From contig NZ_LMVC01000002.1 of the NCBI RefSeq assembly GCF_001510655.1, forward strand, positions 1,269,139 to 1,333,138: a stretch of 64,000 nucleotides of DNA, read 5' to 3'. The notes beneath the pieces are model-generated. The model saw nothing but the letters and a program-made list of their open reading frames with translations. It had not been told where the DNA came from and made no database searches. Shown here piece after piece: positions 40,142 through 55,230 of the stretch. The position numbers and the translations under genes are program-made. The stretch comes from Fictibacillus sp. FJAT-27399. GTDB lineage: Bacteria; Bacillota; Bacilli; Bacillales; Fictibacillaceae. Numbering within the stretch: the stretch's first letter is position 1; each line of letters starts with the position of its first letter.

Positions 40142-40146
40142 GTTCG

Positions 40147-40184: not shown

Positions 40185-40292
40185 TCTTATAAATCCTTCT
40201 CACCATATCTTAACCTAAACATATTCTGTATTACCACCACCATGGGCATAAGCCCGTTTAAGGAATATGAAACGATGAAGGGAGAGAAAAAA

Positions 40293-40780: not shown

Positions 40781-40806
40781 AGAAAAAGTATGTTATTATA
40801 AAGTAC
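40753..40806. other. attL: left junction of the integrative element
   Basis: The GG at 40779-40780 is the shared core dinucleotide. Host sequence (half attB) lies to the left; to the right the 26 bp 40781-40806 form the right arm of attP and are the imperfect reverse complement of the arm at 55179-55204 (18 of 26 positions match). Confidence 0.85.
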
Positions 40807-40837
40807 ATACATATCATACTAAATGGAGTGAAACACT

Positions 40838-42358
40838 TTGTATACACCATTCTCACAAGCTGACTATAAGCCTTCTGATAAGCCTAAAGCATTGTATTTA
40901 AGGAAGTCAAAGAAAAGTAGCGGTAAAACCGAAACAGAAACTATAGAAAGCCATATGAAGCGATTGATTGACTTCTGCAAGGAACAGGGCTGGAATGATT
41001 ATGTTATCTATAATGACTATGTGGCAAAGTCTACAAACGTAAAGAGAGAAGAATATAGAAAGATGTTAAAGGCTTGTTTAGAAGGAAAGCATGATTTAAT
41101 TATTGTTGTGGAAGAATCAAGACTATATCGTTCAGTCAATGAACAAACGAATGTTTATGAAGCAGTAAAAGGTACAGATATTGTTATTCTTTCCATACGT
41201 GAAGGGTATATTTTCCCTAACGACAAGAATCAGTTTCTACCTAATATCCTTCGTGGTGCTATGAATGAACAGGAACTATTGAACTTTGCTTATAGAATGA
41301 ATATAAAAGTTTTGGCAAGTGCTAAGGAAGGTAGCTATGTCAATAAGTCACCTTTCGGTTACTTCAAAGATAAGGACAAGCTGATACCACACCCTATTGA
41401 AAGCAAGACATTTAGGTATATTGTGGACAAGGTATTAGAAGGATATGTAATAGCTGAGATCATTGGACAACTTAACCAACTGGGATATACCACTAAGTCT
41501 AATAAGAAATGGAAAGACGTTGGTACAATTACACGAATGTTGGCTAATCGTGTTTATTTAGGTGAAAGTCACTATTACAGTAAGATGTTTGGAGAAGATG
41601 TTATTGTTAGAGATACCCACCAGCCTTTATTAACAATAGAGGAATATCAAGAAGTGCATAATATGATTAAGTCACGCAGTAGGAATCCACAAGGAATCCG
41701 TTACACTAAAATAAATACTGTACTGGATAGATTAGTGGTATGTGGTATGTGTGGAAATAGATTACCTATTCATAAGTCATGGACTAATAAAGAAGGCGTT
41801 ACATCTTATCAGATTGGAAAATGTCAGAAGGTTATCGGTGAATTTAACGAAAAGAAATGTCCTAATAGATCAATTTCCATGAAGGAACTACTTCCCCACT
41901 TTTATATAGCTGTTGAAAGCTATAAGGAAGCGTTAAGAGAAGAAATAAAAAGCGTTGATATAGATACCACCAATGATAAGAAAATCAGCGTTATGAATCA
42001 AATAAAGGACATTAAAGTCCGTATGGCTGAAATACAAACTGAAATACAAAATGCAAAAAGTTATTTAATCAAAGGAATTTTATCGGAAGCAGACTATGTA
42101 GGATTAGTACCACCATTAGAGAAGGACGCAAAAGAATTGAATATGACACTAGAGTATAACGAGAGGCTACTGGCTAGTTTAAATGATTATGATAGAGGTT
42201 CAGTTATTCAAAATGCTGTTGATTCGCTATATAACATTGAGAACGAAAGCATTGAAAATCAAAATAGGATATACAGACTACTGTTTGAACACCTAGAATT
42301 AGTAAATACAGTAGATGAATTTGAAATAAGACTAAAAGAAAAGGACGTCTCCAATTAG
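40838..42358 (+). CDS. Large serine recombinase (integrase)
   Basis: 506 residues. The resolvase N-terminal domain has the active-site motif YLRKSKKSSG (Ser24) and VVEESRLYRS; the recombinase domain is about 150-270 (VLEGYVIAEIIGQLNQLGYTTK). A zinc ribbon (CGMCGNR, then CQKV...KKCPNR) and a long coiled coil (about 375-450) follow. These features define large serine integrases, which join attP to attB without host factors. The TTG at 40838 follows TGGAGTG at nine bases. It starts 58 bp inside the element, next to attL, as expected for the integrase of this element. Confidence 0.93.
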   Translation: MYTPFSQADYKPSDKPKALYLRKSKKSSGKTETETIESHMKRLIDFCKEQGWNDYVIYNDYVAKSTNVKREEYRKMLKACLEGKHDLIIVVEESRLYRSVNEQTNVYEAVKGTDIVILSIREGYIFPNDKNQFLPNILRGAMNEQELLNFAYRMNIKVLASAKEGSYVNKSPFGYFKDKDKLIPHPIESKTFRYIVDKVLEGYVIAEIIGQLNQLGYTTKSNKKWKDVGTITRMLANRVYLGESHYYSKMFGEDVIVRDTHQPLLTIEEYQEVHNMIKSRSRNPQGIRYTKINTVLDRLVVCGMCGNRLPIHKSWTNKEGVTSYQIGKCQKVIGEFNEKKCPNRSISMKELLPHFYIAVESYKEALREEIKSVDIDTTNDKKISVMNQIKDIKVRMAEIQTEIQNAKSYLIKGILSEADYVGLVPPLEKDAKELNMTLEYNERLLASLNDYDRGSVIQNAVDSLYNIENESIENQNRIYRLLFEHLELVNTVDEFEIRLKEKDVSN

Positions 42359-42372
42359 GAAGCGTCCTTCTT
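42341..42372. terminator. Terminator between converging integrase and small gene
   Basis: AAGGACG / CGTCCTT stem with inner TCC/GGA pairing, followed by T-rich sequence. The stop codons of both genes lie inside the stem. Confidence 0.7.
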
Positions 42373-42480
42373 TGTTTCTGTATTTGATTGAGATAATTTT
42401 ACGATTGCCTCAGCTACTTGTTTATAGTTAGGATTAGTGGCTTTGATTATGGTTACTTTCGGCATACGTTTATTTTTCAT
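42355..42480 (-). CDS. Small protein (41 aa), unknown
   Basis: Minus-strand frame MKNKRMPKVTIIKATNPNYK, then QVAEAIVKLSQSNTETKKDA S. GGGGTGATG lies six bases before the ATG. It converges on the integrase gene with a 4-bp overlap. Basic N-terminus and one amphipathic helix. No family is recognised. Confidence 0.6.
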   Translation of the reverse strand: MKNKRMPKVTIIKATNPNYKQVAEAIVKLSQSNTETKKDAS

Positions 42481-42487
42481 AATCACA

Positions 42488-42562
42488 TCACCCCACGTAA
42501 GCCATAATATTCAGATTGATTATTTTGGTTTTAAATTTTCTACTTCTTTTTATTTCTTTCAT
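42488..42562 (-). CDS. Possible 24-aa peptide upstream of the 41-aa gene
   Basis: MKEIKRSRKFKTKIINLNIM then AYVG, with GAGGTG nine bases before the ATG and its stop seven bases before the next start. Very basic. The coupling to the 41-aa gene is the only support, so it may be only a leader. Confidence 0.3.
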   Translation of the reverse strand: MKEIKRSRKFKTKIINLNIMAYVG

Positions 42563-42946
42563 CTGTACCAGCACCTCGTTGAATTTATTTATTCAAAGAA
42601 GCACTTGCGAAAGACTGTCATTTTAGGACAAGTTAGTTTATCTTTGTTTGTCCTATTGTTTGTCTTTAAGTACCTCTCACTTAGGTACTTTCAAATTCAG
42701 TATGTTTTAGGACATGGAAAATAAAAGAATTATAGATTGCAATAAAATTTCACCTGATAGCCTGTAAAACCCCCTATCCCCAAAGAAGGACTAATAGGGA
42801 AATCTTTTATAGGTTTCCTACGGTGAATAATGACATTGGATTGATCTTTCCTTTTAGCTAAGGTGTGGCTTTGTTGCCAGGCCTTTTTTATTTACAGCAA
42901 TTGCAATTTTATTGCACCTAACAAAACTATGAAGAAGGTGAACAGC
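42563..42946. other. Non-coding control region with hairpins
   Basis: No convincing gene. It contains the inverted repeats AGGACAA/TTGTCCT (42625-42654) and AAGTACCT/AGGTACTT (42668-42690), and the pair TGCAATAAAAT (about 42738) and ATTTTATTGCA (about 42907) either side of the promoter region of the XRE gene. A GTAAAACCCCCTATCC motif at 42764 recurs near the right end of the element at 54714. Confidence 0.5.
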
Positions 42947-43228
42947 TTGGAAGATAATAACCGTATTCCATACGGACAACTAGACAACTTAGATTATCGC
43001 TATATTCGACAAGTTCGATTCCTAAGGAACAAGACGCTAAAGCAAATGGAAGAATTTATGGGTGTAGACGATTCTGTTATTAGTCGTCTTGAAAATGGAC
43101 ATTTAGAATTTACACCTATTTATCAGGAACGTTTTAAGGACGCTATGAAGCGTTTAAGAGTATCAAATATTGAGGTTGCTAGTATCCGTAAAATACTAGA
43201 AATGAAGTCACAACGAGGCTATAAGTGA
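42947..43228 (+). CDS. XRE-family HTH regulator
   Basis: 93 residues from TTG at 42947, six bases after GAAGGTG. The HTH is YIRQVRFLRNKTLKQMEEFM followed by GVDDSVISRLENGH, the Cro/CI-type fold. Small regulators of this kind usually control the early genes or excision of an element. The inverted repeats upstream are candidate operators. Its stop overlaps the next ATG (TGATG). Confidence 0.8.
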   Translation: MEDNNRIPYGQLDNLDYRYIRQVRFLRNKTLKQMEEFMGVDDSVISRLENGHLEFTPIYQERFKDAMKRLRVSNIEVASIRKILEMKSQRGYK

Positions 43229-43305
43229 TGATTACAGTTATCTTGCTATTGCTGTTAAAGGGTTTAGTTGTGGTTAAAGAAAAGCAACAAATTGAAGTTA
43301 ACTAA
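43228..43305 (+). CDS. Tiny membrane peptide (25 aa)
   Basis: MITVILLLLLKGLVVVKEKQ then QIEVN: one hydrophobic helix and a charged tail. The ATG overlaps the stop of the XRE gene, so translation would be coupled. It is too short to classify; type I toxin or small phage membrane peptides look similar. Confidence 0.4.
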   Translation: MITVILLLLLKGLVVVKEKQQIEVN

Positions 43306-43328
43306 AAATTATAAGGTGGTTATCTATT

Positions 43329-43685
43329 ATGGAAAATTTTAATCCTGAATTTATTAAAAAATTGGCAATGGGTGATGAATCAGCACATGAGGAAATTATA
43401 TCTTTACCATTAACAGTTCGTATGGCTTTAGGTACAGCGGTGGATAAGATGAAACGTGATGAAAATATCGTTCCTATGGACGGTGGAAAAATGTCAATTT
43501 ACGAACAAAAAACAAATTCTTATTCAAATGATGAAGAAGTGGCGAACGCATTGGCAGAACGTAACCGTATATTACGTGAAGCTGAGGAACGCAGAGAACA
43601 GATTAGACAAGAACATTTAGAGAGGGAAATTAAGGCAAGGGTTGAACGTGCAAGGGCTGGACTTACTATGAATGACAGACGCTAA
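43329..43685 (+). CDS. Unknown protein with charged coiled coil (118 aa)
   Basis: Starts MENFNPEFIKKLAMGDESAH behind AAGGTGG. The N-terminal half is helical. The C-terminal half (about 75-110) is an E/R-rich heptad region (ERNRILREAEERREQIRQEH) typical of a coiled coil. No family is recognised. Part of the small-gene run after the XRE regulator. Confidence 0.65.
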   Translation: MENFNPEFIKKLAMGDESAHEEIISLPLTVRMALGTAVDKMKRDENIVPMDGGKMSIYEQKTNSYSNDEEVANALAERNRILREAEERREQIRQEHLEREIKARVERARAGLTMNDRR

Positions 43686-43701
43686 TTAAGGACGCGATTG
43701 T

Positions 43702-43833
43702 ATGAAGTATGATAAGGCATTCATTAAAGCTGTGGCTAAAGGTGAACAGATGGCAATAGTTAAAATGCTGACACCTGAACAGGCTTTTGAATTAGGATTA
43801 CAAGTGAAGAAATACGAACAAGACAAGAAATAA
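43702..43833 (+). CDS. Small protein (43 aa), unknown
   Basis: MKYDKAFIKAVAKGEQMAIV, then KMLTPEQAFELGLQVKKYEQ DKK. AAGGA lies about ten bases before the ATG and a strong terminator follows the stop. The FIKAVAKGE and LTPEQAFELG phrases echo FIKKLAMGD and LPLTVRMALG of the 118-aa protein just upstream, so the two may be related. Function unknown. Confidence 0.6.
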   Translation: MKYDKAFIKAVAKGEQMAIVKMLTPEQAFELGLQVKKYEQDKK

Positions 43834-43847
43834 TTCTCTCAAAAAAT

Positions 43848-43884
43848 AGACCGTTGGCATTTAATTTGCTGACGGTCTTTTTCT
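43848..43884 (+). terminator. Terminator after the 43-aa gene
   Basis: AGACCGT / ACGGTCT separated by 17 bases, followed by T5. Confidence 0.85.
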
Positions 43885-43909
43885 ATTACTTTAAAAGGTG
43901 GTTATTCAA

Positions 43910-44260
43910 ATGGAACAGAGTATTAAACAATTAGTAACTTCATCATGTGCGAACTATATAAACGGTAAATGTATTTTATTAGACAGAGAATGTCAACTTA
44001 TTTCAGGTGGTGAATATCGAGGTAAAAAGATACCAGCTAGCGACTGTTCATGTACTTACTTTGAAAAGTCAGTGTTACCAGCTAATAAAACTTTAGAGGC
44101 TATATATTATGGCAAACAATCTGTACAAAACAAGTCATGTAAGGGCTGTGGTAAAGGATTTAACTCAGTATCAAATAGGGCTGTTTATTGCGGTGATAGT
44201 TGCAGAAGATCAGCAAGGCGTTCAACGTTTATTAAAGCTAATCAAAAACGTACTAAGTAA
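43910..44260 (+). CDS. Cysteine-rich VLP-type protein with zinc finger
   Basis: 116 residues from ATG at 43910, seven bases after AAGGTGG. The first part, CANYINGKCILLDRECQLIS followed by DCSCTYFEKSVLP, resembles the cysteine-rich domain with a conserved VLP motif seen in Gram-positive mobile elements. The second part, CKGCGKGF...YCGDSCRRSARRS, is a zinc finger like those in phage and plasmid proteins. Probably nucleic-acid binding. Its stop is the first base of a long inverted repeat. Confidence 0.65.
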   Translation: MEQSIKQLVTSSCANYINGKCILLDRECQLISGGEYRGKKIPASDCSCTYFEKSVLPANKTLEAIYYGKQSVQNKSCKGCGKGFNSVSNRAVYCGDSCRRSARRSTFIKANQKRTK

Positions 44261-44358
44261 CAACAGTTAGAACTAAATAAAGCCTATTATATCAAGGGTT
44301 TCAGAGGTTGAAATTTAACGCGGAAGGGTTTTATACCTATCCGTTTTCTAACTGTTGT
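44260..44358. repeat. Long-spaced inverted repeat
   Basis: ACAACAGTTAGAA (44260-44272) and TTCTAACTGTTGT (44346-44358) are perfect inverted copies 73 bp apart. The interval holds AAGCCTATTATATCAAGGG, which recurs with few changes near 54495. Confidence 0.75.
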
Positions 44359-44389
44359 TTAACTAAATCAATAAAGGTGGTAAATCAAT

Positions 44390-44773
44390 ATGAATAAATC
44401 AGAATTTGAAGGTAAATTACATGAGGTTTACGGTGACACTGTAAAGCCCCTGTCAGCCTAAATAAATAAACAAGCTACAATGTGCTTTAAGTGTAAAAAG
44501 TGTGGACTAAGATTTTTTGGTAATCCTATCCATATGGTAGGTAAAAAACACCAGCGACACGTCTGTAACATGCCTTATGGCGATACAGACGGTACAAGAC
44601 TAGGAAACGTTGGGGGTAAAAATAAAGCTAGAAAAAAAAAGAACTTTACTTTAACCCTTGAACAATTTCACCAACTAGTATGGGAAGATCACTCACCCCA
44701 AGAAATAGCTAAACAAATGCAAGTGAACCCTGACATCATAATTAACTACTTCAAGGACGAGGGGCTGATCTAA
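44390..44773 (+). pseudogene. Zinc-finger/HTH protein gene interrupted by an in-frame TAA
   Basis: From ATG at 44390 (AAAGGTGG upstream) the frame reads MNKSEFEGKLHEVYGDTVKP LSA and meets TAA at 44459-44461. It then stays open in the same frame: INKQATMCFKCKKCGLRFFG and on to a stop at 44773. The continuous reading has a helical start, a CxxCxxC...H...C zinc site and a C-terminal HTH-like segment (FHQLVWEDHSPQEIAKQMQV). The residue at the stop would sit in LSAxINKQ, where Tyr (TAT/TAC) is one base away. Either a nonsense mutation, two ORFs, or recoding; mutation is most likely. Confidence 0.6.
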
Positions 44774-44997
44774 TGAATCTAATCTTGTTTCAGACTAGTC
44801 TTAGAGAACGTAAAGCATATAAGGATGAAACTGGCACACTATATTTAGAATGTACTAGCTGTAAAGCTATAAAGACCAGTGACCTTTTTATTAGAGATAA
44901 ATTTGGCTTTCAAGGTAAAAACTCTTTTTGTAAGTCTTGTAGGAACGAACTGAATAAGATTTATAGAATTAAAAGGGGTATGGCTAAATACAGCTAA
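44773..44997 (+). CDS. Small zinc-ribbon protein (74 aa)
   Basis: MNLILFQTSLRERKAYKDET with CTSCKAIKTSDLF and CKSCRNELNKIYRIKRG: a CxxC...CxxC zinc ribbon with a basic tail, of the type found beside HNH nucleases in phages. The start overlaps the stop of the preceding frame (TAATG), so it is translationally coupled to that broken gene. Confidence 0.6.
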   Translation: MNLILFQTSLRERKAYKDETGTLYLECTSCKAIKTSDLFIRDKFGFQGKNSFCKSCRNELNKIYRIKRGMAKYS

Positions 44998-45007
44998 TAG
45001 CCCTTTC

Positions 45008-45171
45008 CTATTCTTCCTCGTCACCGTACATAGCCTCATAATTCAATCTAGCTATTTCCTCTATCGTCGGCTTCCAAAATGCTTTTCTGCTAATACTGAT
45101 AACAGTTTAATTCGTTCCCCATTATCCATTTCTTCCATAGCTTTTAGTATTTGATCGGATGTCATTTTCAT
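45008..45171 (-). pseudogene. Small gene with a single-base frameshift
   Basis: The minus-strand frame from 45171 (GGGGTG upstream) reads MKMTSDQILKAMEEMDNGER IKLLSVLAEKHF and then GSRR-stop at 45061. Adding one T to the TTTT run after CAT restores WKPTIEEIARLNYEAMYGDE EE and a stop at 45008, giving a 54-residue acidic protein. This is either a real frameshift or an assembly error in a homopolymer. Confidence 0.5.
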
Positions 45172-45198
45172 ATATTAGCACCCCAAAAAGTATTGAAA

Positions 45199-45253
45199 AA
45201 ATCCCCTATACGGAGGCTAATAGAACTTTATTTAGCCTATATACAGAGGATTT
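45199..45253. terminator. Hairpin between two minus-strand small genes
   Basis: AAATCC...AGGCTAA and TTAGCCT...GGATTT form a two-part stem. It would end transcripts of the 41-aa gene at 45263-45388. Confidence 0.5.
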
Positions 45254-45262
45254 ATCCGTTAA

Positions 45263-45388
45263 TTAGTTTTTAAATAAAGCAATTTTTACAACCCATATCA
45301 CTAAACCTAGCACTATTTTTGCAATTATATCTGCCCAAAATCTTTTGCTAATTACCATACGCTTTAAACGAGTGATGAACGGTTTCAT
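45263..45388 (-). CDS. Small single-helix membrane protein (41 aa)
   Basis: MKPFITRLKRMVISKRFWAD then IIAKIVLGLVIWVVKIALFKN: a basic N-terminus and one membrane helix. GGAGGGTAAATAA precedes the ATG, an excellent ribosome site, so it is very likely expressed. Basic-plus-one-helix peptides in mobile elements are often toxins or holin-like, but nothing here proves that. Confidence 0.6.
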   Translation of the reverse strand: MKPFITRLKRMVISKRFWADIIAKIVLGLVIWVVKIALFKN

Positions 45389-45842
45389 TTATTTACCCTC
45401 CGAAGTTTATTCGGTGTAGCTGGTAAGGGAAACAAAAGTCTATTTAGTTATCAGCTGGAATTTACCCATTTTATTTTATCTTTACCACTCTTCACTCGTT
45501 TGGTTACCTATCGTTCATTTTTATTCGCCTTTTTATCTGTTAACTTTACCTTGGCTTTTTTAGTCTTTTAGGATTTTATATTTTATATTAGTGGTTTTTA
45601 ATTTAACGTTTAACGGAGTTTTTATTCTTAGTTATTTTTTTATAAGACTACACAACCCTATAATTTCCACACCGTAATTAAATTATATTTGAATTCTACT
45701 AAATATGTACTATAAAACATATATTCAATTTCCAAAAGACCATAACTTATTTTACAATAAATGCTAACTTATTTAAAATAGTAGAAGAATTGCCATATAT
45801 AATGCTATATCACATATTATAAAAATAAAGGACGGTAATGTA
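45389..45842. other. AT-rich intergenic region
   Basis: About 450 bp between divergent genes, with no ORF I can support. It must hold the promoter of the EVE/HNH cassette; several TATAAT-like hexamers make a specific call unsafe. Confidence 0.5.
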
Positions 45843-47141
45843 ATGAATTTGAGTAATCCTGTTGCAGAGGACAAAAATGAAAATAAAATTAAACCTTCTG
45901 GTTTCTGGACATTTTTCTGTAACCCCCAAAAATGGGCTGTTGACGATTTCTTAGCGTCAAATAAAGTTGAAGATACATTTTCAATAACTAGTTGGCAAAA
46001 AGACTGGTTTAAAAAAGGACAATTAGGTGTTATTAGAGTTGGTCACGACTATAGAAACAAAGAACAACTAAACGGTAAACCAAAGCTAAAGCGTGGTATA
46101 TATGCAGTAGTTGAAGTTACTGGTAAACCGATTTATTCATCAGAAAGAGACGAACATTATTACGAAGAAAGCGATCAAGAAAATTACCGAGTACCTGTTA
46201 GATACATAAGAAACTTATTAAATAGCCCTGTATTACTTGAGGATTTAAACTTAAAAGAAAATGACTACGATAAGTATTTAGTTGAAGGCTTTCAAGCCTC
46301 CTCAATGCCCCTAAACCCACAAACGTTAAAAAAAATATCCATACTTGTAGATAGTGCAAAAAATACAAACCCTATTCCTCTTAAAGTCGGAAGTGAACTT
46401 GCACGAAAAGACATTTACAGGGTTTACAATGTACCAGAAGAAAAACAAGGTGGTAATTGGAACACTGGGTACACTACCTTCAATGATGACGTTTTTATAT
46501 TTGCCAATATTAACTCTGCTGGACGAACTGGACATGACTATGACAATAAATTTATTGGTGATAACTTTCAGTGGTTTGGCAAGAATCACCATTCACTAGC
46601 TACACCAACTATTCAAGCTATGTTAAATCCGAAAGGAAACATTTATATTTTCACACGTGAGGACAGTAGTAATCCTAACTTTGTGTATCAAGGTAACGGT
46701 AGAGTAAAAGAATATAAGGATACTAAACCAGTAAAAATTATATGGGAATTTAATGATGAAAATGAAGAATACCCTAATAAAACTACTGCGGAAGTAGATA
46801 ACCCAGAAAAATATACAGAAGGTTCTACTAAACAAGTATCTGTTAACGTATATGAACGTAACCCAGTAGCTAGAAAGAAGTGTATTGAACATTATGGGTG
46901 TAGTTGTGTAGTTTGTGATTTTAATTTTGAAAGAACATATGGCGATCTTGGCAAGGACTTTATACATGTTCACCACCTTAAAGAGTTACATACTATTGGT
47001 GAAAAATATGAAGTTGATCCTATTGCTGATTTAAGACCCGTATGCCCGAATTGTCATGCTATGCTTCACAAAAGAAAGCCTGCCTACTCTATTGAGTTCT
47101 TAAAAAATCTATTAAAAGGAGAGGTCATAAGTGAATTATAA
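45843..47141 (+). CDS. Modification-dependent restriction endonuclease: EVE + SRA-like + HNH
   Basis: 432 residues in three parts. Residues about 18-170 form an EVE (PUA-like) domain: SGFWTFFCNPQKWAVDDF, KGQLGVIRVGHDYR, GIYAVVEVTGKP. Residues about 180-320 (ARKDIYRVYNVP, GGNWNTGYTTFNDDVFIF, YDNKFIGDNFQWFGK, IYIFTRED) match the SRA-like/DUF3427-type domain of McrA-like enzymes. Residues 340-425 are an HNH nuclease: CSCVVCDFNFERTYGDLGKD, HVHHLKEL, CPNCHAMLH. EVE and SRA-like folds read modified DNA bases, so it should cut DNA with modified cytosine or similar, such as phage genomes. It overlaps the next gene by 11 bp. Confidence 0.85.
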   Translation: MNLSNPVAEDKNENKIKPSGFWTFFCNPQKWAVDDFLASNKVEDTFSITSWQKDWFKKGQLGVIRVGHDYRNKEQLNGKPKLKRGIYAVVEVTGKPIYSSERDEHYYEESDQENYRVPVRYIRNLLNSPVLLEDLNLKENDYDKYLVEGFQASSMPLNPQTLKKISILVDSAKNTNPIPLKVGSELARKDIYRVYNVPEEKQGGNWNTGYTTFNDDVFIFANINSAGRTGHDYDNKFIGDNFQWFGKNHHSLATPTIQAMLNPKGNIYIFTREDSSNPNFVYQGNGRVKEYKDTKPVKIIWEFNDENEEYPNKTTAEVDNPEKYTEGSTKQVSVNVYERNPVARKKCIEHYGCSCVVCDFNFERTYGDLGKDFIHVHHLKELHTIGEKYEVDPIADLRPVCPNCHAMLHKRKPAYSIEFLKNLLKGEVISEL

Positions 47142-47421
47142 AAACGACTTTAAAGTACACAATGAGTGGGATAGAAAAATCCTAAAATCAAGTGAAGGTA
47201 AGAACAGATATTATAGGGTTTTCGTGGGTGACGTTACTTGGAACGACGGTATTGAGAGGCTAGCTTGTATTGTGTTCATTCAACATGGTAATTCTGAAGA
47301 TTGGAAAACAGCTTGTAAAAATAGAGAAATTGTTTTTGATAATCCTGCACATATTTTATTTCAAGACTATGAAATGGTTGATAAAGCCTGTAAAGATTTG
47401 ATAGCACGTTATTCTAAATAA
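47131..47421 (+). CDS. Unknown protein in the EVE/HNH cassette (96 aa)
   Basis: Starts at GTG 47131 behind AAAGGAGAGG, inside the end of the nuclease gene, so expression is coupled. MNYKNDFKVHNEWDRKILKS, RYYRVFVGDVTWNDGIERLA and IVFDNPAHILFQDYEMVDKA show a compact alpha/beta protein with no known motif. Tight coupling to the nuclease makes it a candidate partner, inhibitor or specificity subunit. Confidence 0.65.
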   Translation: MNYKNDFKVHNEWDRKILKSSEGKNRYYRVFVGDVTWNDGIERLACIVFIQHGNSEDWKTACKNREIVFDNPAHILFQDYEMVDKACKDLIARYSK

Positions 47422-47436
47422 GAGGAAAAGCGAAAC

Positions 47437-48117
47437 ATGATAAATTTGATTATCAATAACTTTATAAATGATCTAAATAGCACATTATTAAGAGATCATA
47501 ATAAGTTAACATGTAATGATATACGTAACAACTACATTTATCTTACTGATAACTTTAAAAAGTATTTCGGTAGTAAAAGTAACTTTTCTGGTTTTACCGA
47601 GTTACTGCTTCTAAAAATTATAGAAGGGTGGCTTTTATCAAATAGTTACCTTAAAGTCTCTTCTGGGGGAACTTTAAATGGTAAAAGAACATACTTTGAT
47701 AAGTATGGAAATGAGAAGATTAAAACACAACAATCGGATATCAAAGTAATGAATGGAAACACCATTGAATATTACTTTTCAGTAAAAGCAATTAAAATAC
47801 CTCAAAAGGTAAAAGTAGACGTTGGTGACTTAAATAGTAATATTGTGGCTAATTACTTTCAAGGCAGTTTGGATAAAGATACTGAAATACCTTTAGCATT
47901 ACAGGACTTTAACCGAATAGAGAATGTACGACATAGTGAACATGATAACTTTAAAGCTGTTACTATTTTTTATTCTAAACCCAACGGTACAAATATAGAT
48001 TTACTAAATAAGATTAAAAAAAATTACAGCTGGTACGATTATATTTGTCTAAATGATAATGACTTTGCTGATAGAATCTTCATAAACTTGTTAAAAGAAA
48101 AATTGAATGTCTATTAG
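47437..48117 (+). CDS. Putative PD-(D/E)XK-like nuclease in the EVE/HNH cassette
   Basis: 226 residues. The centre reads QQSDIKVMNGNTIEYYFSVK AIK, which resembles the D...(E/S)xK strand pair of PD-(D/E)XK nucleases, with Ser in place of the second acid. Upstream FTELLLLKIIEGWLLSNSYL could be the first helix. I do not recognise the family by name, and the nuclease reading is inference. It is the last gene of the three-gene cassette, followed by a bidirectional terminator. Confidence 0.55.
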   Translation: MINLIINNFINDLNSTLLRDHNKLTCNDIRNNYIYLTDNFKKYFGSKSNFSGFTELLLLKIIEGWLLSNSYLKVSSGGTLNGKRTYFDKYGNEKIKTQQSDIKVMNGNTIEYYFSVKAIKIPQKVKVDVGDLNSNIVANYFQGSLDKDTEIPLALQDFNRIENVRHSEHDNFKAVTIFYSKPNGTNIDLLNKIKKNYSWYDYICLNDNDFADRIFINLLKEKLNVY

Positions 48118-48121
48118 TAAG

Positions 48122-48154
48122 AAAAAAGGGTGTCCGTTTAGGATACCCTTCTAT
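48122..48154. terminator. Bidirectional terminator between the two defence-like operons
   Basis: AAGGGTGTCC / GGATACCCTT stem flanked by A and T runs, between converging operons. Confidence 0.85.
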
Positions 48155-49185
48155 AGTTCTTCTTCAATCAACAATCTTAACTTATGCTTTTTCATAAAGT
48201 CAGCTATAAAAATTTCACCGAATTTTTCAATATAGTAATAATATTTATCCATTTTTGTTTTATCCAAATCATATTCTAATAACGCCTTATGGATAATCTC
48301 ATGCCTCATATTTATCATTCCACTTAACACACTTGCAATAGTTTCTTCATTCTCGTTATAAATAGTTTCTTCATTCTCGTTATATTTAATTCTTTTACTT
48401 AATACATCATATAAGTCAAAATTCAAATATTTTGTATATCCTCTATTAGCAGATTTAAAGTTTTGAAAAGAATAATCCTCTAATTCAATGTCTATAATAG
48501 ACTTTTCACCTGAAAGTATTTCTTTCACGATTGAATATGGTAATTTATCTTTCTTACGAAAAATTTCATCTACTGCTTCATCATTTGTTTCTAAGTATCT
48601 CATAAAAAATAATTTTAAAAATGTTTCAAGAACAGAAACAAAAAATGGTAACAATGTGTTGTTGCGTAATAACTGTTTATTACTTATGGAAAAACCTCTC
48701 GCTAATTCTCCCTCAATTTCTTTTAGATCTACTTCTTCAATCAGTAACTTTGCTTTACGTAGATTCTCTTTAAAATGTAAATAGGCTAGACCACAGGCAA
48801 TTTCGGTTCTCGATAAGTTTGGCCAATCATTCTCAAAGAAACCGTATTCATTTTCATCAGGATCAAATATTTCACCACCGTATTTTTCTTGAATTTTCCC
48901 AAGAACTTTCATTTGCATTTCAATATCCCCATAACTTCTACCAGCATAAGTCTTTGTTTGAAGTACTGTATTAAACACTTTGTAAACCTCTGGTTCATCA
49001 CTAATAAATACTTCTACATCATATCCAAAACTAAACCAACAACCTCTTGTGGAAACATAGTCACTGTTAAACCAAAAATAATCATCATAGCCTTCATGTT
49101 TCTTGAATCCTAGATTACAAATAATTTGTTCTATATCATCTTTATCAATATATTCATCTACTAATAAACTTAATTCAATACTCAT
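48151..49185 (-). CDS. HEPN-domain protein (344 aa)
   Basis: Last gene of a four-gene minus-strand operon. The C-terminal region has MRHEIIHKALLEYD, the R-x4-H motif of HEPN ribonucleases with a polar residue after Arg. The first 130 residues are an unrelated acidic domain (DYFWFNSDYVSTRGCWFSFG). The centre is helical (LPFFVSVLETFLKLFFMRYL). HEPN proteins in defence loci usually cut RNA on infection. A 24-bp tandem duplication (48337-48384) encodes YNENEETI twice, just before the HEPN motif. Confidence 0.7.
   Translation of the reverse strand: MSIELSLLVDEYIDKDDIEQIICNLGFKKHEGYDDYFWFNSDYVSTRGCWFSFGYDVEVFISDEPEVYKVFNTVLQTKTYAGRSYGDIEMQMKVLGKIQEKYGGEIFDPDENEYGFFENDWPNLSRTEIACGLAYLHFKENLRKAKLLIEEVDLKEIEGELARGFSISNKQLLRNNTLLPFFVSVLETFLKLFFMRYLETNDEAVDEIFRKKDKLPYSIVKEILSGEKSIIDIELEDYSFQNFKSANRGYTKYLNFDLYDVLSKRIKYNENEETIYNENEETIASVLSGMINMRHEIIHKALLEYDLDKTKMDKYYYYIEKFGEIFIADFMKKHKLRLLIEEEL
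48337..48384 (-). repeat. 24-bp tandem duplication inside the HEPN gene
   Basis: Two exact adjacent copies of a 24-bp unit, frame-preserving, each encoding YNENEETI. It suggests a length-variable linker. Confidence 0.9.
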
Positions 49186-49230
49186 ATACCCACCACATTC
49201 ACCTTTAAGATTGTTGAGACATTAGTCATA

Positions 49231-50199
49231 TTATTTTAAAATCAACTCCCTAAACCAGTCATTTAATTTCTCGTTATTATCATCTCTATAAAGCTGACTT
49301 ACTTTTTCTTCACTAAGAATATAAACATAAAGGGATCTTAAATAATCATCAAATTTGCTTGACATTTCTTCTAATTTTTCAATATCTCTATATTTTTTAT
49401 TTAATTTATCACCATGCACTGTTGATGACCTTACTGCATATGCATTTTTAATAAAAGTAAATATTTCTAACCGTTCCTCATAAGTTCCACCTAATATCCT
49501 TGCCATTCTTTCGGCAATTTTATGAGTGATTTCATCTTTATCAGTGGATAAAAAAGTCTCTAGTAATGTACAGTACATACCAATTTTACTTGGTAAATGT
49601 GTTTGTGTTCTAGTTGATTGTAGAAAATAATTAAACCGTTCAATTCTATTTGATAGAGTATTTACTACCATTGCCATTTGATCTGGTTCTTTTATTATAT
49701 GTTGATTATTTAAACCTTTTATTGATTCAGCTAACCTCTTTAATTCTTCATATGTAAAAATTATCTGTTCATTTTTACACTTTGAATTAAAGAAAATAGG
49801 GGTTCTCATATTAGATGTCATTGAATGAGGTGTACCATCGGAGTTTTTTATATATAAAAATCCTTGTTGAACTGTCACACTATTATCTTTTGCTAACCAC
49901 AAAAAATTTGAAAATGTTTGTGCCATCTTAAGATAATAATCTAAAAGGTCTAATCTAGCTTCTCCATTGTCAATATCAATTTCAAGTTGTTCCGTATTCC
50001 CCTGATAATATAAAAATGGTTTATCATATAATTCATCAACTTCGAGTTTACCAGCTAGTGTCATAAAAAAATCATCAATAAAAGTATCTAGCCTCTCTTT
50101 GCTGTTTGACAGTCTAATTCCTTCAATAACTTCAAGACCTTTGTTCATTACTCTTTGAACTTTTAGATTATAAATACTTGCTACAAAATAAAACTTCAC
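49231..50199 (-). CDS. Apea-like HEPN protein (322 aa)
   Basis: The C-terminal third holds KIAERMARILGGTYEERLEI followed by FTFIKNAYAVRSSTVHGDK, the Apea-type HEPN signature with RSSTVHG as the catalytic R-x4-H. The N-terminal two thirds is a mixed domain without a known motif (WLAKDNSVTVQQGFLYIKNS). It starts six bases after the HNH gene and 45 bp before the second HEPN gene. Two different HEPN proteins in one operon with HNH nucleases points to an abortive-infection type system; the mechanism is inferred. Confidence 0.75.
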   Translation of the reverse strand: MKFYFVASIYNLKVQRVMNKGLEVIEGIRLSNSKERLDTFIDDFFMTLAGKLEVDELYDKPFLYYQGNTEQLEIDIDNGEARLDLLDYYLKMAQTFSNFLWLAKDNSVTVQQGFLYIKNSDGTPHSMTSNMRTPIFFNSKCKNEQIIFTYEELKRLAESIKGLNNQHIIKEPDQMAMVVNTLSNRIERFNYFLQSTRTQTHLPSKIGMYCTLLETFLSTDKDEITHKIAERMARILGGTYEERLEIFTFIKNAYAVRSSTVHGDKLNKKYRDIEKLEEMSSKFDDYLRSLYVYILSEEKVSQLYRDDNNEKLNDWFRELILK

Positions 50200-50205
50200 T
50201 AAGTG

Positions 50206-50676
50206 TCACTCTCCACTATTTTGATTCATTAAAGTTTTCAATTGATCCTTACTTAACCAAGGTCTTTTTCTATGTAACATTCTATGACAGTTTGAACAAA
50301 CAATAGCTATATCCTCTATCTTAGTTACTTGACCGTCTTCTAATTCTGATACCGGTATAGTGTGATGACCCTCTATAAAATCCTCACCAATTTCACCATA
50401 AGTTTTATAAAAGTCAAAACCGCAAATTTCACAAAAAATACGACCATTATTTTCTTGCTTAAATTTTTCCTTTGCCAACCTAATAACCTGTGGATTACGT
50501 TCCCTAAATATATGTTGTCTTAACTTCTTCTTTCCTTCAACAAACCCTATATCATCCTCAGTTAATTCTACACTATATCCATCAGGTTCAAAATTTCTTA
50601 AACCCCAATATCCCTTCCCCTTACCATCAATAGAATAGAATAATTGATACTCTCCTAAAATAAAACGATTTATTTT
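50206..50676 (-). CDS. HNH endonuclease, McrA-like, open frame without a standard start
   Basis: The frame is open from 50676. It reads KINRFILGEYQLFYSIDGKG, then GYWGLRNFEPDGYSVELTED, then EGKKKLRQHIFRERNPQV, and then the HNH domain CEICGFDFYKTYGEIGEDFI, GHHTIPVSEL, CSNCHRMLHRKRPW. No ATG/GTG/TTG with a ribosome site lies before the conserved part; the TTG at 50478 cuts into it. It overlaps the upstream gene by 7 bp at a GAAAAATAA sequence, where a -1 slip on AAA would fuse the two. Alternatives are an N-terminal truncation or use of a rare start. Confidence 0.65.
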   Translation of the reverse strand, partial: KINRFILGEYQLFYSIDGKGKGYWGLRNFEPDGYSVELTEDDIGFVEGKKKLRQHIFRERNPQVIRLAKEKFKQENNGRIFCEICGFDFYKTYGEIGEDFIEGHHTIPVSELEDGQVTKIEDIAIVCSNCHRMLHRKRPWLSKDQLKTLMNQNSGE

Positions 50677-51455
50677 TCAACTAATACTTTCTTTTCCAGT
50701 ACCCTAATTACTTTTTCTCTTAGAGGCATTTCATTAAAAACAGAATATGACCAATTAGCATTTTGTAACTTTTTTTGTTTCTCAAAGAACTGCTGTAATG
50801 ATTCACCAGTTTTTGCTTTAGGCATTTTATCTAGTATTTGCTGTTTAGAGGCTAACCTTTTACTAGCAATTAGAATTTCTTGACTACATTCATTTACCTT
50901 CATAAAATGAATATCCAGCTTTTCTTTTTCTTCTTCCCACTTGTCTTTTTCTGCGGATCTAAAATATGTATAGTCTATATGGTGCAATGAATGGCACATA
51001 TGACACAATAAAGATAAACCAGTTAGTATTATTGTTGTATTATCTTCGTCAAAATCCCATTCCTCATGAACGTGTAGTTGTGTAAGATCATTAGGTGAAA
51101 AAACACAAGCAGAACAACATTCATTATTCATTTCTAAAACAATGGTTCTTACCTTTCCCCACAAGGATTGTCCAATTAGTGTTCTTACTGATTTATGCTG
51201 GACATATTTTGGCATACGTCTTTCTATCTTTAGTTTCAATCCATCTAAAACAGGCATATAAGATTCTAGGTCTTTTATTTTAGGGGGCCTTCTTTTATAA
51301 ATAACATAGTTTAATTCTTTTAAATCCTTTTTTAATGTTGTTTCTGTAACCTCTAATTTTGAGGCTACAATAGGTGTATCTGTTTCAGGAATAACCCCAA
51401 AACTATCGCTTGACATATAGTTTTCTTTTAAATATTGGATACGTTCACTTTTCAT
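50670..51455 (-). CDS. HTH-HNH protein, first gene of the HEPN operon
   Basis: 261 residues. The start resembles a winged HTH (PIVASKLEVTETTLKKDLKE LNYVIYKRR). The middle has WGKVRTIVLEMNNECCSACV, then HVHEEWDFDEDN and LLCHMCHSLHHIDY: an HNH-type fold with CxxC, HEEW and CxxCH elements. The C-terminus is helical and charged. GAGGAAAGG precedes the ATG. It probably binds and cuts or nicks DNA, and may sense invaders or regulate the operon. Confidence 0.7.
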   Translation of the reverse strand: MKSERIQYLKENYMSSDSFGVIPETDTPIVASKLEVTETTLKKDLKELNYVIYKRRPPKIKDLESYMPVLDGLKLKIERRMPKYVQHKSVRTLIGQSLWGKVRTIVLEMNNECCSACVFSPNDLTQLHVHEEWDFDEDNTTIILTGLSLLCHMCHSLHHIDYTYFRSAEKDKWEEEKEKLDIHFMKVNECSQEILIASKRLASKQQILDKMPKAKTGESLQQFFEKQKKLQNANWSYSVFNEMPLREKVIRVLEKKVLVEK

Positions 51456-52162
51456 TTTAAGGTTTCCTTTCCTCTATCCTTATAATTCCATTCTAAATGT
51501 TTTTGAAAAAATTGGCGAAAAAATTTTTTTGAGGAATTGGGAAAATGAAAAAGCAAAATCACTAAGTACCCCTTCAAAAAAGTTTTGAAAATATGGTGTA
51601 TATTTTGCAAGTATCAGACGAGGGGATTTGGTAGGGAGGCTTCCCATAGGCTGGGGCATACCCCATTACCTTGCCTTATAGCTATACTGGTCCTACTATT
51701 CCACTGTGGATATATAGCCTCTTCCCTTGTTTCTTTTCTTCATTCGTTTCTTTCCGTTCTTTCATTAGTTCATTGTTGTCGCTGTCTGTCCGTTCGCTTC
51801 GTCCTTGCCTTGCCTTGTCTTGTGCTGTTGTATTTGCATTGTGCCTTGCCTGTCGCTGTTGCTATGTCTTAATATTACCTACTGTCTATCGTACTGTATG
51901 ACTGTACTGTGGGCTGTGTTAGGGTATTTACGTGACGTACCTATTTACACCCTGTTTTTATCTCTTCTCTATTGATTGGCACTTTTGATTGTGGGCTATC
52001 CCTTGTTCTTAGTGGGTTAACAAGGGGCAATCATTAGTGATGAGTTTTGATTGAATCATTTTCTTACACCCTTTAATAATACGTTTACTAAAATTACCAT
52101 TATAGATTTTTTGATCTAAAACGTAGTTATATATATAAAACTTTTAAAGGGGAGAAAATTGT
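51456..52162. other. 700-bp intergenic region with a pyrimidine-rich tract and hairpins
   Basis: No credible gene. GGGAGGCTTCCC and TGGGGCATACCCCA hairpins (about 51633-51664) are followed by a strongly T/C-skewed, G-poor tract (about 51715-51905) made of TTGCCTTGCC-like words. Further on is the paired GATTG...CCCTTGTT / AACAAGGG...CAATC hairpin (51987-52032). Such strand asymmetry is seen at replication or transfer origins and in structured RNAs. Confidence 0.5.
51987..52032. repeat. Two-part hairpin
   Basis: GATTG and CCCTTGTT pair with AACAAGGG and CAATC around an 11-nt loop. It is not followed by a T-run, so it is more likely a DNA or RNA structural site than a terminator. Confidence 0.65.
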
Positions 52163-52327
52163 ATGAGTAAATATGCTGATAAGGTAGATTTTTGGAGACA
52201 AAAAGGTTTTGATGTTGTAGAAAAGCGGGGGTGGGTTAGAAAAATTCGTAGTTTAGCCAGGGAAAGATTAAGTCAACAAGATTATATTGATTGTATGAAG
52301 CAAGTCGGATGGGAAAGCATTATTTAA
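52163..52327 (+). CDS. Small protein (54 aa), unknown
   Basis: MSKYADKVDFWRQKGFDVVE, then KRGWVRKIRSLARERLSQQD and YIDCMKQVGWESII. AAAGGGGAG lies at good distance and a perfect terminator follows. The sequence is basic and helical. No family is recognised. Confidence 0.65.
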   Translation: MSKYADKVDFWRQKGFDVVEKRGWVRKIRSLARERLSQQDYIDCMKQVGWESII

Positions 52328-52344
52328 TTTATCCTTTAATGAAA

Positions 52345-52375
52345 AAAACAAGGGTTTTTATGCCCTTGTTTTTAA
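52345..52375 (+). terminator. Terminator after the 54-aa gene
   Basis: AACAAGGG / CCCTTGTT with an 8-nt loop and a T5 tail. Confidence 0.9.
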
Positions 52376-52383
52376 ATATAATT

Positions 52384-52485
52384 TTAGTAATCAACTTTTC
52401 CTGATCCACCGCACTTCTTGCAAGGACCGTCAGTATCAAAATCATGTCCTGTACCATCACACCATTAACAAGTTTCAGTTGCCAT
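52384..52485 (-). pseudogene. DnaJ-type zinc-finger miniprotein with an in-frame TAA
   Basis: From ATG at 52485 (AAAGAGGGTG upstream) the frame reads MATETC, then TAA, then WCDGTGHDFDTDGPCKKCGG SGKVDY and a stop at 52384. The interrupted motif is CxWCDGTG...CKKCGGSG, the CxxCxGxG pair of DnaJ-like zinc fingers, so the stop replaces the residue between Cys6 and Trp8. This is the second zinc-finger gene in the element broken by TAA. Confidence 0.6.
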
Positions 52486-52580
52486 ATTTTCACCCTCTTT
52501 ATTTTGAAATTTTTTCCTATCTTTAAAATTCTACCGATTTCCTTATAATCCTTTCTAAAAAAAGAAAGGTTCACAAAAAT

Positions 52581-52684
52581 AAATGTAACATAATAGATAA
52601 AAAGTTACATTCATTTCACTGTAAATGCTGGACATAAAGGAAATTAGTGATAAACTGAGATAAAACAAAAATATGTTACATTCA
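52581..52684. repeat. Repeated GTTACATTCA sites upstream of the tyrosine recombinase
   Basis: AAATGTAAC (52581-52589) is inverted against GTTACATTCA (52604-52613), and GTTACATTCA occurs again at 52675-52684, 39 bp before the start codon. They could be recombinase arm sites or operators. Confidence 0.6.
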
Positions 52685-52722
52685 AAATACTGATTTTATT
52701 GATGTTGAAAGAGGTTATAAAA

Positions 52723-53289
52723 ATGAGTAGCAAAAAAGAAGAAATCAAAGATGTACAGCCTATTAGATCACTGGAACAATTAAATGATATGAAATGGTCA
52801 CTAAAAAAATGGTGTGGTGAACGTGACTACATAATGTTTCTTATAGGTATCAATACTGGATTAAGGGTAAGTGACTTACTGAAATTAAAGATCAGTGACA
52901 TTAAGGGGAAAAAGAAACTAGCTGTTAAAGAGGGAAAAACAGAAAAGCCTCGCACTATCCACCTTACGAATATATACAAGGAACTAAATGATTATATAGG
53001 GACATTAGAAGGCACTGAATGGCTGTTCCCATCTCGTAAGGGTGATAAGCCTATAAGTAGAATACAAACGTACAGACAGCTTAATAAAGCGTCTGAAATG
53101 GTTGATATTCCTGACGGTATTGGAACTCATACAATGCGTAAAACTTTTGGTTATTGGTACTATAAACAAACCAAAGATATAGCAACATTACAAACCATTC
53201 TTAACCACTCCCACCCTGAGATCACTTTACGATATATCGGGATTACTGACGAAGAAATTGAAAACAGCTTATCTAATTTCGTATTATGA
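52723..53289 (+). CDS. Short tyrosine recombinase (catalytic domain only)
   Basis: 188 residues from ATG at 52723 (GAAAGAGG upstream). The catalytic residues are visible: Arg in NTGLRVSDLLKLK, Lys in VKEGKTEKPRTIHL, HTMRKTFG (HxxR), and NHSHPEITLRYIG with the second His and Tyr. The N-terminal SAM-like core-binding domain is absent, as in a group of short recombinases on Bacillus plasmids. It lies at the opposite end from the serine integrase, so it probably resolves multimers or acts on another site. Confidence 0.85.
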   Translation: MSSKKEEIKDVQPIRSLEQLNDMKWSLKKWCGERDYIMFLIGINTGLRVSDLLKLKISDIKGKKKLAVKEGKTEKPRTIHLTNIYKELNDYIGTLEGTEWLFPSRKGDKPISRIQTYRQLNKASEMVDIPDGIGTHTMRKTFGYWYYKQTKDIATLQTILNHSHPEITLRYIGITDEEIENSLSNFVL

Positions 53290-53310
53290 GGCAACACTTT
53301 AGGCAAAGAA

Positions 53311-53347
53311 AAGGGCTACACTATAACCAGTGTTAGCCTCTTTTTTA
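53311..53347 (+). terminator. Terminator after the tyrosine recombinase
   Basis: AGGCTA-ACT / AGT-TTAGCCT-type stem (GGGCTACACT with AGTGTTAGCC) followed by T6. Confidence 0.8.
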
Positions 53348-53610
53348 TATACAACTTTATTTCACTAACAATAGATCAGCTTTAAAAGGTGACATTGTGC
53401 ATAGCTGTTTTAATGCCAAATGATTAGCTTGTTGACCGTAAAGCAAAAACACTAAAAACCTTTACACCAATAGGATTAGGCAAATAAATATTTCTGAGGG
53501 GCTGTATGTACAACTGGCAAGGAAGCGTTATCAATGCCCAATAAAGCATAAATACGAAATAGTATTTTCTCTTAGTTAAATGCAATTTTTTACAGGGAAA
53601 ATAAATAATA
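53348..53610. other. Intergenic region, nothing recognised
   Basis: About 260 bp between the converging recombinase and the 252-aa gene. No ORF with a ribosome site and no strong repeat was seen. Confidence 0.5.
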
Positions 53611-53640
53611 AAAGCTATTAAGGATAATCTTAACAGCTTT
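53611..53640 (-). terminator. Terminator after the 252-aa gene
   Basis: AAAGCT-TTAAG / CTTAA-AGCTTT stem with T-rich sequence after it on the minus strand. Confidence 0.8.
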
Positions 53641-53649
53641 CAGCTTTTT

Positions 53650-54408
53650 CTATTTTCTTAAATGAATTTGTAGTTTACCACTGAATAATTCTTTAGCACT
53701 GTACTTAGTAGTTATGTCACTAATATCACCTATGTTAACTGTAATAGGTTCATCAGTTTCAATGCTAGTAATAACAAATCTATATTCGTTTTGGTTTTCA
53801 AAATATTTATCTTTCCAAAAGAAAATTTCATTGTTATTTTTTCTATATGATCCCAACCGTTTTGTATTATTTACTGTATAGTCATCATAATTAACTTTGG
53901 ACATTACATAACCATAGCCCTTTTCAGAAAACGCTTTTTCTACTCTTTCTATAAAGTTCTTAGGGTCTATTATTGCAAGTTGATCTCCAAACTCATTTAT
54001 CATTTTTTCAACTTCTTCGTCATTAAAATTCATTTCCGTTATGTAGAACTCGTCTGTCTCTTCGACCATTGATAAATTATCACTAGTTAGTGCGAAAATA
54101 CAGAAAACTGGTTTCTTCTCATCACCATCAATTCGTAAGTTCATACTTTCACTAGTTCCTGTAAAAGCTAACTCACCAGTTTCTTGGTCATACATTTTAA
54201 ATTCAATTTCCGAGAAAACTTGAGACGCTTCTAGTTTGTCACCTTGTCCCCTGTCACCTGTTTTCTTTTCTTGGTCGATATAGTGTTGAAGGTTATTCAT
54301 ATAAAGGTTACCCTCAATAAGGCTATCAATATATGGACTGAACTTAAAAAATGCAATTATTGAATCCTCATACTTTGATACTTCTGACATCTTCATTTTA
54401 GTTTTCAT
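53650..54408 (-). CDS. Unknown protein (252 aa), candidate accessory/defence gene
   Basis: IIAFFKFSPYIDSLIEGNLY MNN, GQGDKLEASQVF, KPVFCIFALTSDN, VNYDDYTVNNTKRLGSYRKN and FFWKDKYFENQNEYRFVI form a pattern I associate with uncharacterised proteins of Gram-positive plasmids and phages (DUF2971-like layout), but I cannot name a family with certainty. The conserved-looking acidic and aromatic residues (E, D, W, K, Y, R) suggest an enzyme. GGGAGGCG precedes the ATG. It stands alone, next to the right end of the element. Confidence 0.6.
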   Translation of the reverse strand: MKTKMKMSEVSKYEDSIIAFFKFSPYIDSLIEGNLYMNNLQHYIDQEKKTGDRGQGDKLEASQVFSEIEFKMYDQETGELAFTGTSESMNLRIDGDEKKPVFCIFALTSDNLSMVEETDEFYITEMNFNDEEVEKMINEFGDQLAIIDPKNFIERVEKAFSEKGYGYVMSKVNYDDYTVNNTKRLGSYRKNNNEIFFWKDKYFENQNEYRFVITSIETDEPITVNIGDISDITTKYSAKELFSGKLQIHLRK

Positions 54409-55062
54409 TTAGCTACGCCTCCCTTTTACTTCATAATTCGTCACAGTCCACCATACTTCCTTCTTTTTCCATTGTGATTAACAAACATTAAAAAGCCTTA
54501 TATATCAAGGGTTCACAGGATTTAATAATCACAAGTAAAATCACAGATTGAAGGACTTTCAATTTGTGACTAACAAATTACTAAAAATCTTCACAGGGTC
54601 TAAGCACTAACTTTTTTATGAATGTGACTAAATTGCGAACGTAATAAATCCAGTAATATCAATGGTTACAGCGTTTTGTAATAAATTACTATAAAATATT
54701 TACTGTGGTGACCAGTAAAACCCCTATTCGTCAAAGAGGTATATAATAAAGAGATAAAGATAATAAAACTTTAACTAAACTCTATAACAGTAATAAAGAT
54801 AAAAGATATGGCTTCGCCAGTTCGGTGATAAATCACCTCACCAATACTAATAACTATTCTAATAATAGCTATGATAGTGACAAAAAAGATAAGTTAATCT
54901 GTTTAATAGAGTTGTCGAGTTTACGAGACAAGCGTAAGCAATAAGAACTTAATTACTTTAATCCTTTTCATGAATAATTCTATCCAGCAAAATAGCTGGT
55001 GTGACAATTGAATATATCCTAACCTAAACCAGTTAACAGTAATAGCAAGGTAACAGCACTTT
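54409..55062. other. Non-coding right-end region with repeats
   Basis: 650 bp without a supported gene. GTGATTAACAAA (about 54475) and GTGACTAACAAA (about 54578) are direct repeats, each followed by a TTCACAGG-type word (about 54513 and 54592). AAGCCTTATATATCAAGGG (54495) matches a motif at 44281, and AGTAAAACCCCTATTC (54714) matches one at 42764. The clustering near one end suggests recombination or replication sites. Confidence 0.55.
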
Positions 55063-55102
55063 TCCCTAATGGTCTTTAAAGATCGTTAGGGATTCTTTTT
55101 TT
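55063..55102 (+). terminator. Terminator near the right end of the element
   Basis: TCCCTAA-G-TCTTT / AAAGA-C-TTAGGGA, nearly continuous stem, followed by T7. Confidence 0.85.
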
Positions 55103-55117
55103 GTCCATTATTAGCAA

Positions 55118-55150
55118 TAAAAAAACTGTCAGGGGCTAACCTAACAGTCT
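55118..55150 (-). terminator. Terminator facing out of the host gene
   Basis: ACTGT-AGG / CCT-ACAGT with T7 on the minus strand, 30 bp from attR. Together with the previous hairpin it insulates the element from flanking transcription. Confidence 0.75.
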
Positions 55151-55178
55151 GCAATTTCATCATACACCCTTTTTGAAA

Positions 55179-55230
55179 ATACTTTATATTAAGAGGTTTT
55201 ATCAGGTGATTATGTCATCCAGGCCGCTCC
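55179..55230. other. attR: right junction of the integrative element
   Basis: The core GG is at 55205-55206. The 26 bp to its left (55179-55204) are the left attP arm, and host sequence resumes at 55207 in frame with the permease fragment ending at 40780. Confidence 0.85.

What the first reader, a model, noticed from the sequence alone, without database searches (positions are those of the whole stretch)
48151..51455. Four-gene HNH-HNH-HEPN-HEPN operon, a candidate new abortive-infection system
An HTH-HNH protein, a McrA-like HNH protein, an Apea-type HEPN protein (RSSTVHG) and a second HEPN-type protein (RHEIIH) are packed head to tail. DNA-targeting and RNA-targeting nucleases in one operon, on a mobile element next to a type IV cassette, suggest DNA sensing coupled to RNA cleavage.
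Basis: partly seen in the sequence, partly recalled or inferred. Interest (0 to 1): 0.8.

Follow-up and report, generated by a model that had tools for sequence, protein, structure and literature searches.

The report
Two-HEPN defence pair, not four
A 14.4-kb mobile element in a Bacillus-like bacterium carries two adjacent genes for unrelated HEPN-type proteins that are likely RNA-cutting and predicted to act against viruses, next to two HNH nuclease-type genes that were not found beside them in the relatives read, one of which lacks the front end its relatives have.

Summary
The four-gene system does not hold. (1) The McrA-like HNH gene is 5'-truncated: its frame has no ATG/GTG/TTG before codon 67 and lacks about 60 residues present in 209-aa relatives. 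(2) Seven of seven neighbourhoods read of remote HTH-HNH relatives hold no such HEPN gene. (3) Of 18 other HEPN loci read, none holds both HEPN families or a relative of either HNH gene. What is supported is a HEPN1-HEPN2 pair: both occur in Niallia sp. 03133 and Bacillus sp. AFS076308 (tables only, DNA not read). Both keep RxxxxH and model as HEPN domains, but are unrelated to each other in sequence, and HEPN1 is not ApeA. HEPN1 relatives lie near CBASS, Gabija and Septu genes and in phage-like elements; a HEPN2 relative stands alone in a P2-like coliphage, and 64 of 5,426 E. coli genomes hold that gene. Best reading: two RNase abortive-infection genes carried as likely phage-derived cargo. 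DNA sensing coupled to RNA cleavage is unsupported. No activity was tested.

The parts
48151..49185 (-). HEPN2, 344 aa: residues 1-122 ferredoxin/ZipA-like alpha-beta domain, 129-337 HEPN with RHEIIH; carries an 8-aa tandem duplication in a loop before the motif
49231..50199 (-). HEPN1, 322 aa, GTG start: N-terminal domain not matched to a fold (about 1-180), 183-303 HEPN with RSSTVHG
50206..50676 (-). 5'-truncated McrA-like HNH frame (partial front domain, winged helix by eye, + intact Cys4-HNH); first usual start is TTG 50478 (90 aa)
50670..51455 (-). HTH-HNH protein, 261 aa: SpoIIID-like helix-turn-helix + HNH (C114, C117, H130, C151, C154, H155 invariant in 12 rows); full length against its relatives
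40781..55206 (.). integrated mobile element, 14,426 bp with one copy of a GG core, GC 32% against 41-42% in the flanks
40838..42358 (+). large serine recombinase at the left end of the element
43898..44260 (+). Cys-rich gene; relatives lie near HEPN1 in L057 and beside HEPN2 in L061; taken as one edge of the cargo slot (inference)
45843..47141 (+). type-IV-like gene, DUF3427 + HNH
52699..53289 (+). small XerC-like tyrosine recombinase (phrog_216); a 75% identical relative lies 2.2 kb from HEPN1 in L056; taken as the other edge of the cargo slot (inference)

Best explanation
The core of this finding is a pair of adjacent HEPN genes that likely encode two RNases of phage defence, carried on a 14.4-kb integrative element that is likely phage-derived, and it is unlikely to be a four-gene system. 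Shown: two intact frames, both with the HEPN catalytic RxxxxH conserved, both modelled as HEPN domains behind different N-terminal domains; proteins of both families on one contig in two other strains; several relatives of each gene in phage-like elements or near known defence systems. Inferred: each protein would dimerise through its HEPN domain to build the RNase site; the N-terminal domains (about 180 residues in HEPN1, a ferredoxin/ZipA-like 120-residue domain in HEPN2) would hold the site off until they sense a product of infection, after which cell RNA is cut and the infection aborts, sparing sister cells and the resident element. The two genes would be co-transcribed and complementary; whether they form one complex is open. 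The HTH-HNH gene is taken to be a separate cargo gene, and the short HNH frame the 3' remnant of a former type-IV-like gene.
Confidence: 0.55

Rival explanations
1. HEPN1 and HEPN2 are two independent single-gene abortive-infection systems that happen to be neighbours in a cargo slot.
For: Each occurs without the other in every other locus read: 15 distinct HEPN1 loci and 3 HEPN2 loci. The E. coli phage relative of HEPN2 stands alone between an ogr-like gene and a tail gene. The two are not related in sequence (hhalign 0.1%).
Against: Both families on one contig in two other named strains at 77-88% protein identity to the window, with both frames kept open.
Confidence: 0.3
2. A four-gene system: HNH proteins sense or cut DNA and switch on HEPN RNases.
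For: Same strand, tight packing, 6- and 45-nt gaps; HEPN genes near DNases of R-M systems are a known theme (PMC3710099, passages seen).
Against: The second HNH gene lacks its start and about 60 N-terminal residues. No relative of either HNH gene lies near HEPN1 or HEPN2 relatives in any of 18 other HEPN loci, and 7 of 7 neighbourhoods read of remote HTH-HNH relatives hold neither HEPN. The neighbourhoods of the 11 close HTH-HNH relatives were not read.
Confidence: 0.06
3. HEPN1-HEPN2 is a toxin-antitoxin pair in which one HEPN protein is the antitoxin.
For: Two small genes in tandem on a mobile element; HEPN folds closest to the HepT toxin.
Against: Both keep the catalytic R and H; each is found without the other; no MNT-type partner among the cassette proteins scanned.
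Confidence: 0.07
4. The stretch is a decaying cargo graveyard in which none of the four genes works.
For: The HNH frame is truncated, HEPN2 has an in-frame duplication, and broken HEPN1 copies exist in two other genomes (G161, G309).
Against: HEPN1, HEPN2 and HTH-HNH frames are full length against their relatives with catalytic residues kept; dN/dS 0.18 for HEPN1.
Confidence: 0.1

Closest known systems
ApeA (PF18739 HEPN_Apea), HEPN defence protein
   Same: C-terminal HEPN with a conserved R and H, predicted RNase
   Different: four ApeA proteins read here are 475-499 aa; HEPN1 is 322 aa, gives no PF18739 match and 0.3% hhalign probability
RiboL-PSP-HEPN family (PF18735; 'Ribo L-PSP-HEPN' in PMC3710099, passage)
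   Same: HEPN2 rows match it in 23 of 27 at E<=0.1
   Different: HEPN2 has a ferredoxin/ZipA-like N-terminal domain and no L-PSP match; the window protein itself is below the family cut-off
HepT of HEPN-MNT toxin-antitoxin
   Same: among the nearest solved HEPN folds for both proteins
   Different: no MNT nucleotidyltransferase among the cassette proteins scanned, and both proteins are more than twice as long
CBASS and CARF/SAVED-type HEPN effectors
   Same: HEPN1 relatives lie directly after a CBASS cyclase and 4TM effector in two genomes; activation of an RNase by a sensor domain is the likely logic
   Different: no CARF or SAVED match in 20 HEPN1 rows and no cyclase among the nine cassette proteins scanned
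McrA-like / type IV HNH endonucleases
   Same: HNH of frame 2, PF01844 E 6.5e-10; 51.7% identity to Ligilactobacillus HNH proteins
   Different: front end missing

Membership tests
ApeA | match to PF18739 HEPN_Apea | tested here: not met
   0 of 20 HEPN1 rows and 0 of 8 remote relatives at E<=0.1; own genome no match
ApeA | profile similarity to bona fide ApeA proteins | tested here: not met
   hhalign probability 0.3% for HEPN1, 0.1% for HEPN2, against 4 ApeA proteins
ApeA | about 300-aa N-terminal ApeA-NTD1 before the HEPN domain (PMC3710099, passage) | tested here: not met
   HEPN1 has about 180 residues before the HEPN
HEPN superfamily RNases | helical HEPN fold | tested here: met
HEPN superfamily RNases | catalytic RxxxxH | tested here: met
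   20 of 20 HEPN1 rows, 26 of 27 HEPN2 rows
HEPN superfamily RNases | RNase activity | not testable with these tools
   needs purified protein
RiboL-PSP-HEPN (PF18735) | match to PF18735 over the family cut-off | tested here: inconclusive
   window HEPN2 E 0.66, 10.3 bits against a cut-off of 28.4; 23 of 27 rows at E<=0.1, best 4.4e-8; PF18735 precomputed for 6 of 27 hits
HEPN-MNT toxin-antitoxin | adjacent MNT nucleotidyltransferase gene | tested here: not met
   none among the nine proteins scanned in each, which include both genes next to HEPN2 and the gene next to HEPN1
four-gene HNH-HNH-HEPN-HEPN system | the four genes recur together | tested here: not met
   0 of 18 other HEPN loci read hold a relative of either HNH gene; 0 of 7 HTH-HNH loci read hold HEPN1 or HEPN2
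HEPN1-HEPN2 two-gene module | the two genes recur side by side | tested here: inconclusive
McrA-like HNH endonuclease | complete N-terminal domain and start codon | tested here: not met

The most novel reading that the evidence does not exclude
HEPN1 and HEPN2 form one two-subunit immune RNase: two unrelated HEPN proteins, each with its own sensor domain, pair to build a composite active site, so that cutting starts only when two infection signals coincide; HEPN1 is a plug-in RNase that has also been attached to CBASS, Gabija and Septu loci.
Probability: 0.12. Interest if true: 0.8.

Novelty: new variant of a known kind. Interest (0 to 1): 0.42.

Why it matters
Neither HEPN family carries a defence label in PADLOC, NCBIfam or PHROGs, and no Pfam HEPN family matched HEPN1 or its relatives, yet relatives of both lie in phage-like elements and HEPN1 relatives near three known kinds of defence system. 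They are ready candidates for testing, one of them (the HEPN2 relative of a P2-like phage) in E. coli laboratory strains. The case also warns that tight packing in a cargo slot is not evidence of one system: a truncated neighbour can look like a subunit.

Tried and rejected
Apea label for HEPN1: rejected. Duplication of one HEPN gene into two: not supported, 0.1% hhalign. Frameshift fusion of HTH-HNH with the HNH frame: considered because the frames overlap at 50670-50676; rejected because HTH-HNH ends where its relatives end and I see no canonical slippery heptamer there (by eye). RNA families: none at the gathering threshold in 40000-56000. Promoter and terminator scans: no more than chance. 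PDB by sequence: best E 0.36 and 0.76 for the two HEPN families; a SpoIIID-like HTH for HTH-HNH (2l0k, E 0.0031). Foldseek gave no match at E<=0.001 for either model; the N-terminal domain of HEPN1 was not matched, which is no evidence of a new fold. Viral contigs: one HEPN2 locus, two HEPN1 loci, none for HTH-HNH or for three single-protein queries. Genome contigs: one HEPN1 locus. Plasmids by protein: 3 records for HEPN1, none for HEPN2 or HTH-HNH. Phage records by protein: none for HEPN1 or a second HEPN1 relative, two records of one phage for HEPN2. The name GntP for the split transporter is from memory; Pfam gives only a weak DctM match below cut-off. Papers: searches (listings and abstract starts); of six papers I saw passages only (PMC3710099, PMC9122126, PMC9519451, PMC13092281, PMC11811056, PMC11090510). 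Nothing in what I saw describes this pair; the library lacks most subscription journals.

Full report
What is there. The window lies on contig 6 of a 4.5-Mb genome. Six nt lie between the HNH stop and HEPN1, and 45 nt between HEPN1 and HEPN2. On the plus strand, converging on HEPN2, are a DUF3427-HNH gene (45843-47141) and two genes without a family match over cut-off.

The mobile element. A transporter-like gene (weak DctM match) is cut in two, 40182-40780 and 55207-56122. Of the 6 other genomes of the genus, 5 hold the left-flank sequence, and in all 5 the two flanks lie side by side. The junctions share only GG, so the element is 40781-55206, 14,426 bp, with a large serine recombinase at the left end. 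Its GC is 32.1% against 42.2% and 41.2% in the flanks; the four-gene stretch is 29.3%. A Cys-rich gene (43898-44260) has relatives 2 kb from HEPN1 in L057 (38%) and beside HEPN2 in L061 (38%), and a small XerC-like recombinase (52699-53289) a 75% relative in L056, 2.2 kb from HEPN1. I infer that the genes sit in a cargo slot of a family of phage-like elements.

The second HNH frame is a remnant. The frame is open from 50676, with a stop just upstream, and has no ATG, GTG or TTG until TTG 50478. Ligilactobacillus relatives are complete at 209 aa and align from residue 5 of the 153-aa query (51.7%); they have about 60 more residues in front, which a 340-aa Priestia relative also has (a winged helix by eye). 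The preceding HTH-HNH gene ends where its 11 aligned relatives end, so this is not one split gene. A 90-aa HNH protein from TTG 50478 remains possible.

The HTH-HNH gene. Twelve proteins, its own included, form its close family. Its N-terminus resembles SpoIIID (2l0k, E 0.0031). In 397 genomes of the order, 38 match; 12 besides its own are strong, and none of these covers residues 1-39. I read 7 of those 12 neighbourhoods and none has HEPN1 or HEPN2; in one (L062) the relative lies 36 nt from a gene resembling the window's DUF3427-HNH protein. The neighbourhoods of the close relatives were not read; none of them shares a contig length with the HEPN lists, which is a weak test.

Do they belong together? 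I saw tables, not DNA, for these. Against: 16 HEPN1 loci (15 distinct) and 3 HEPN2 loci read as DNA lack the other gene, and none has a relative of either HNH gene (tblastn E<=1e-4). I therefore hold the pair as likely co-selected but unproven as a unit, and the four-gene system as unsupported.

Mechanism. By established knowledge of HEPN RNases, two HEPN domains dimerise to form the RNase site. I infer that HEPN1 and HEPN2 would be silent RNases whose N-terminal domains sense infection, followed by RNA cleavage and abortive infection. The sensing step, the trigger and the target RNA are inference. HEPN genes next to R-M and HNH genes have been described since 2013 (PMC3710099, passages), and HEPN domains recur among E. 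coli defence genes (PMC9519451, passages; PMC13092281, passages), so the kind is known; the two families and their pairing are what seems new here, as far as the searches named above reach.

Noticed in passing
L069:4962-5984; L109:5001-6023; L110:5001-6023: A HEPN2 relative (gp34, 340 aa) sits alone in a P2-like coliphage genome between an ogr-like gene and a tail gene; 64 of 5426 complete E. coli genomes carry it; the two looked at have it in the same place, annotated as hypothetical.
   Followed up: partly
   Followed up: partly
L102:6339-10341: HEPN1 relative before a Gabija GajA-GajB pair, 332 nt apart.
   Followed up: partly
L009:5995-9413: A viral contig with a HEPN2 relative, an 8xMP membrane gene and a DUF4145 gene (a HEPN type by PMC3710099, passage) in a row; three other genes nearby gave no Pfam match.
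   Followed up: partly
window 48337-48384: 24-bp tandem duplication in HEPN2 adding 8 residues, absent from 26 relatives.
   Followed up: yes
L059:6200-14737: A HEPN1 relative next to a partial thymidylate-synthase-like frame, with a complete copy about 7 kb further: looks, by eye, like an element inserted in thyA.
   Followed up: no
   Followed up: no
window 53650-54408: 252-aa gene matching phrog_26561 (unknown function, E 2.1e-28) in the same element.
   Followed up: no
L104:2610-3497, L105:2165-3028: A 287-295-aa family in many genomes of one family (f68) of the class shares the C-terminal part of HEPN1 (residues 213-280); the two members scanned have no Pfam match.
   Followed up: partly
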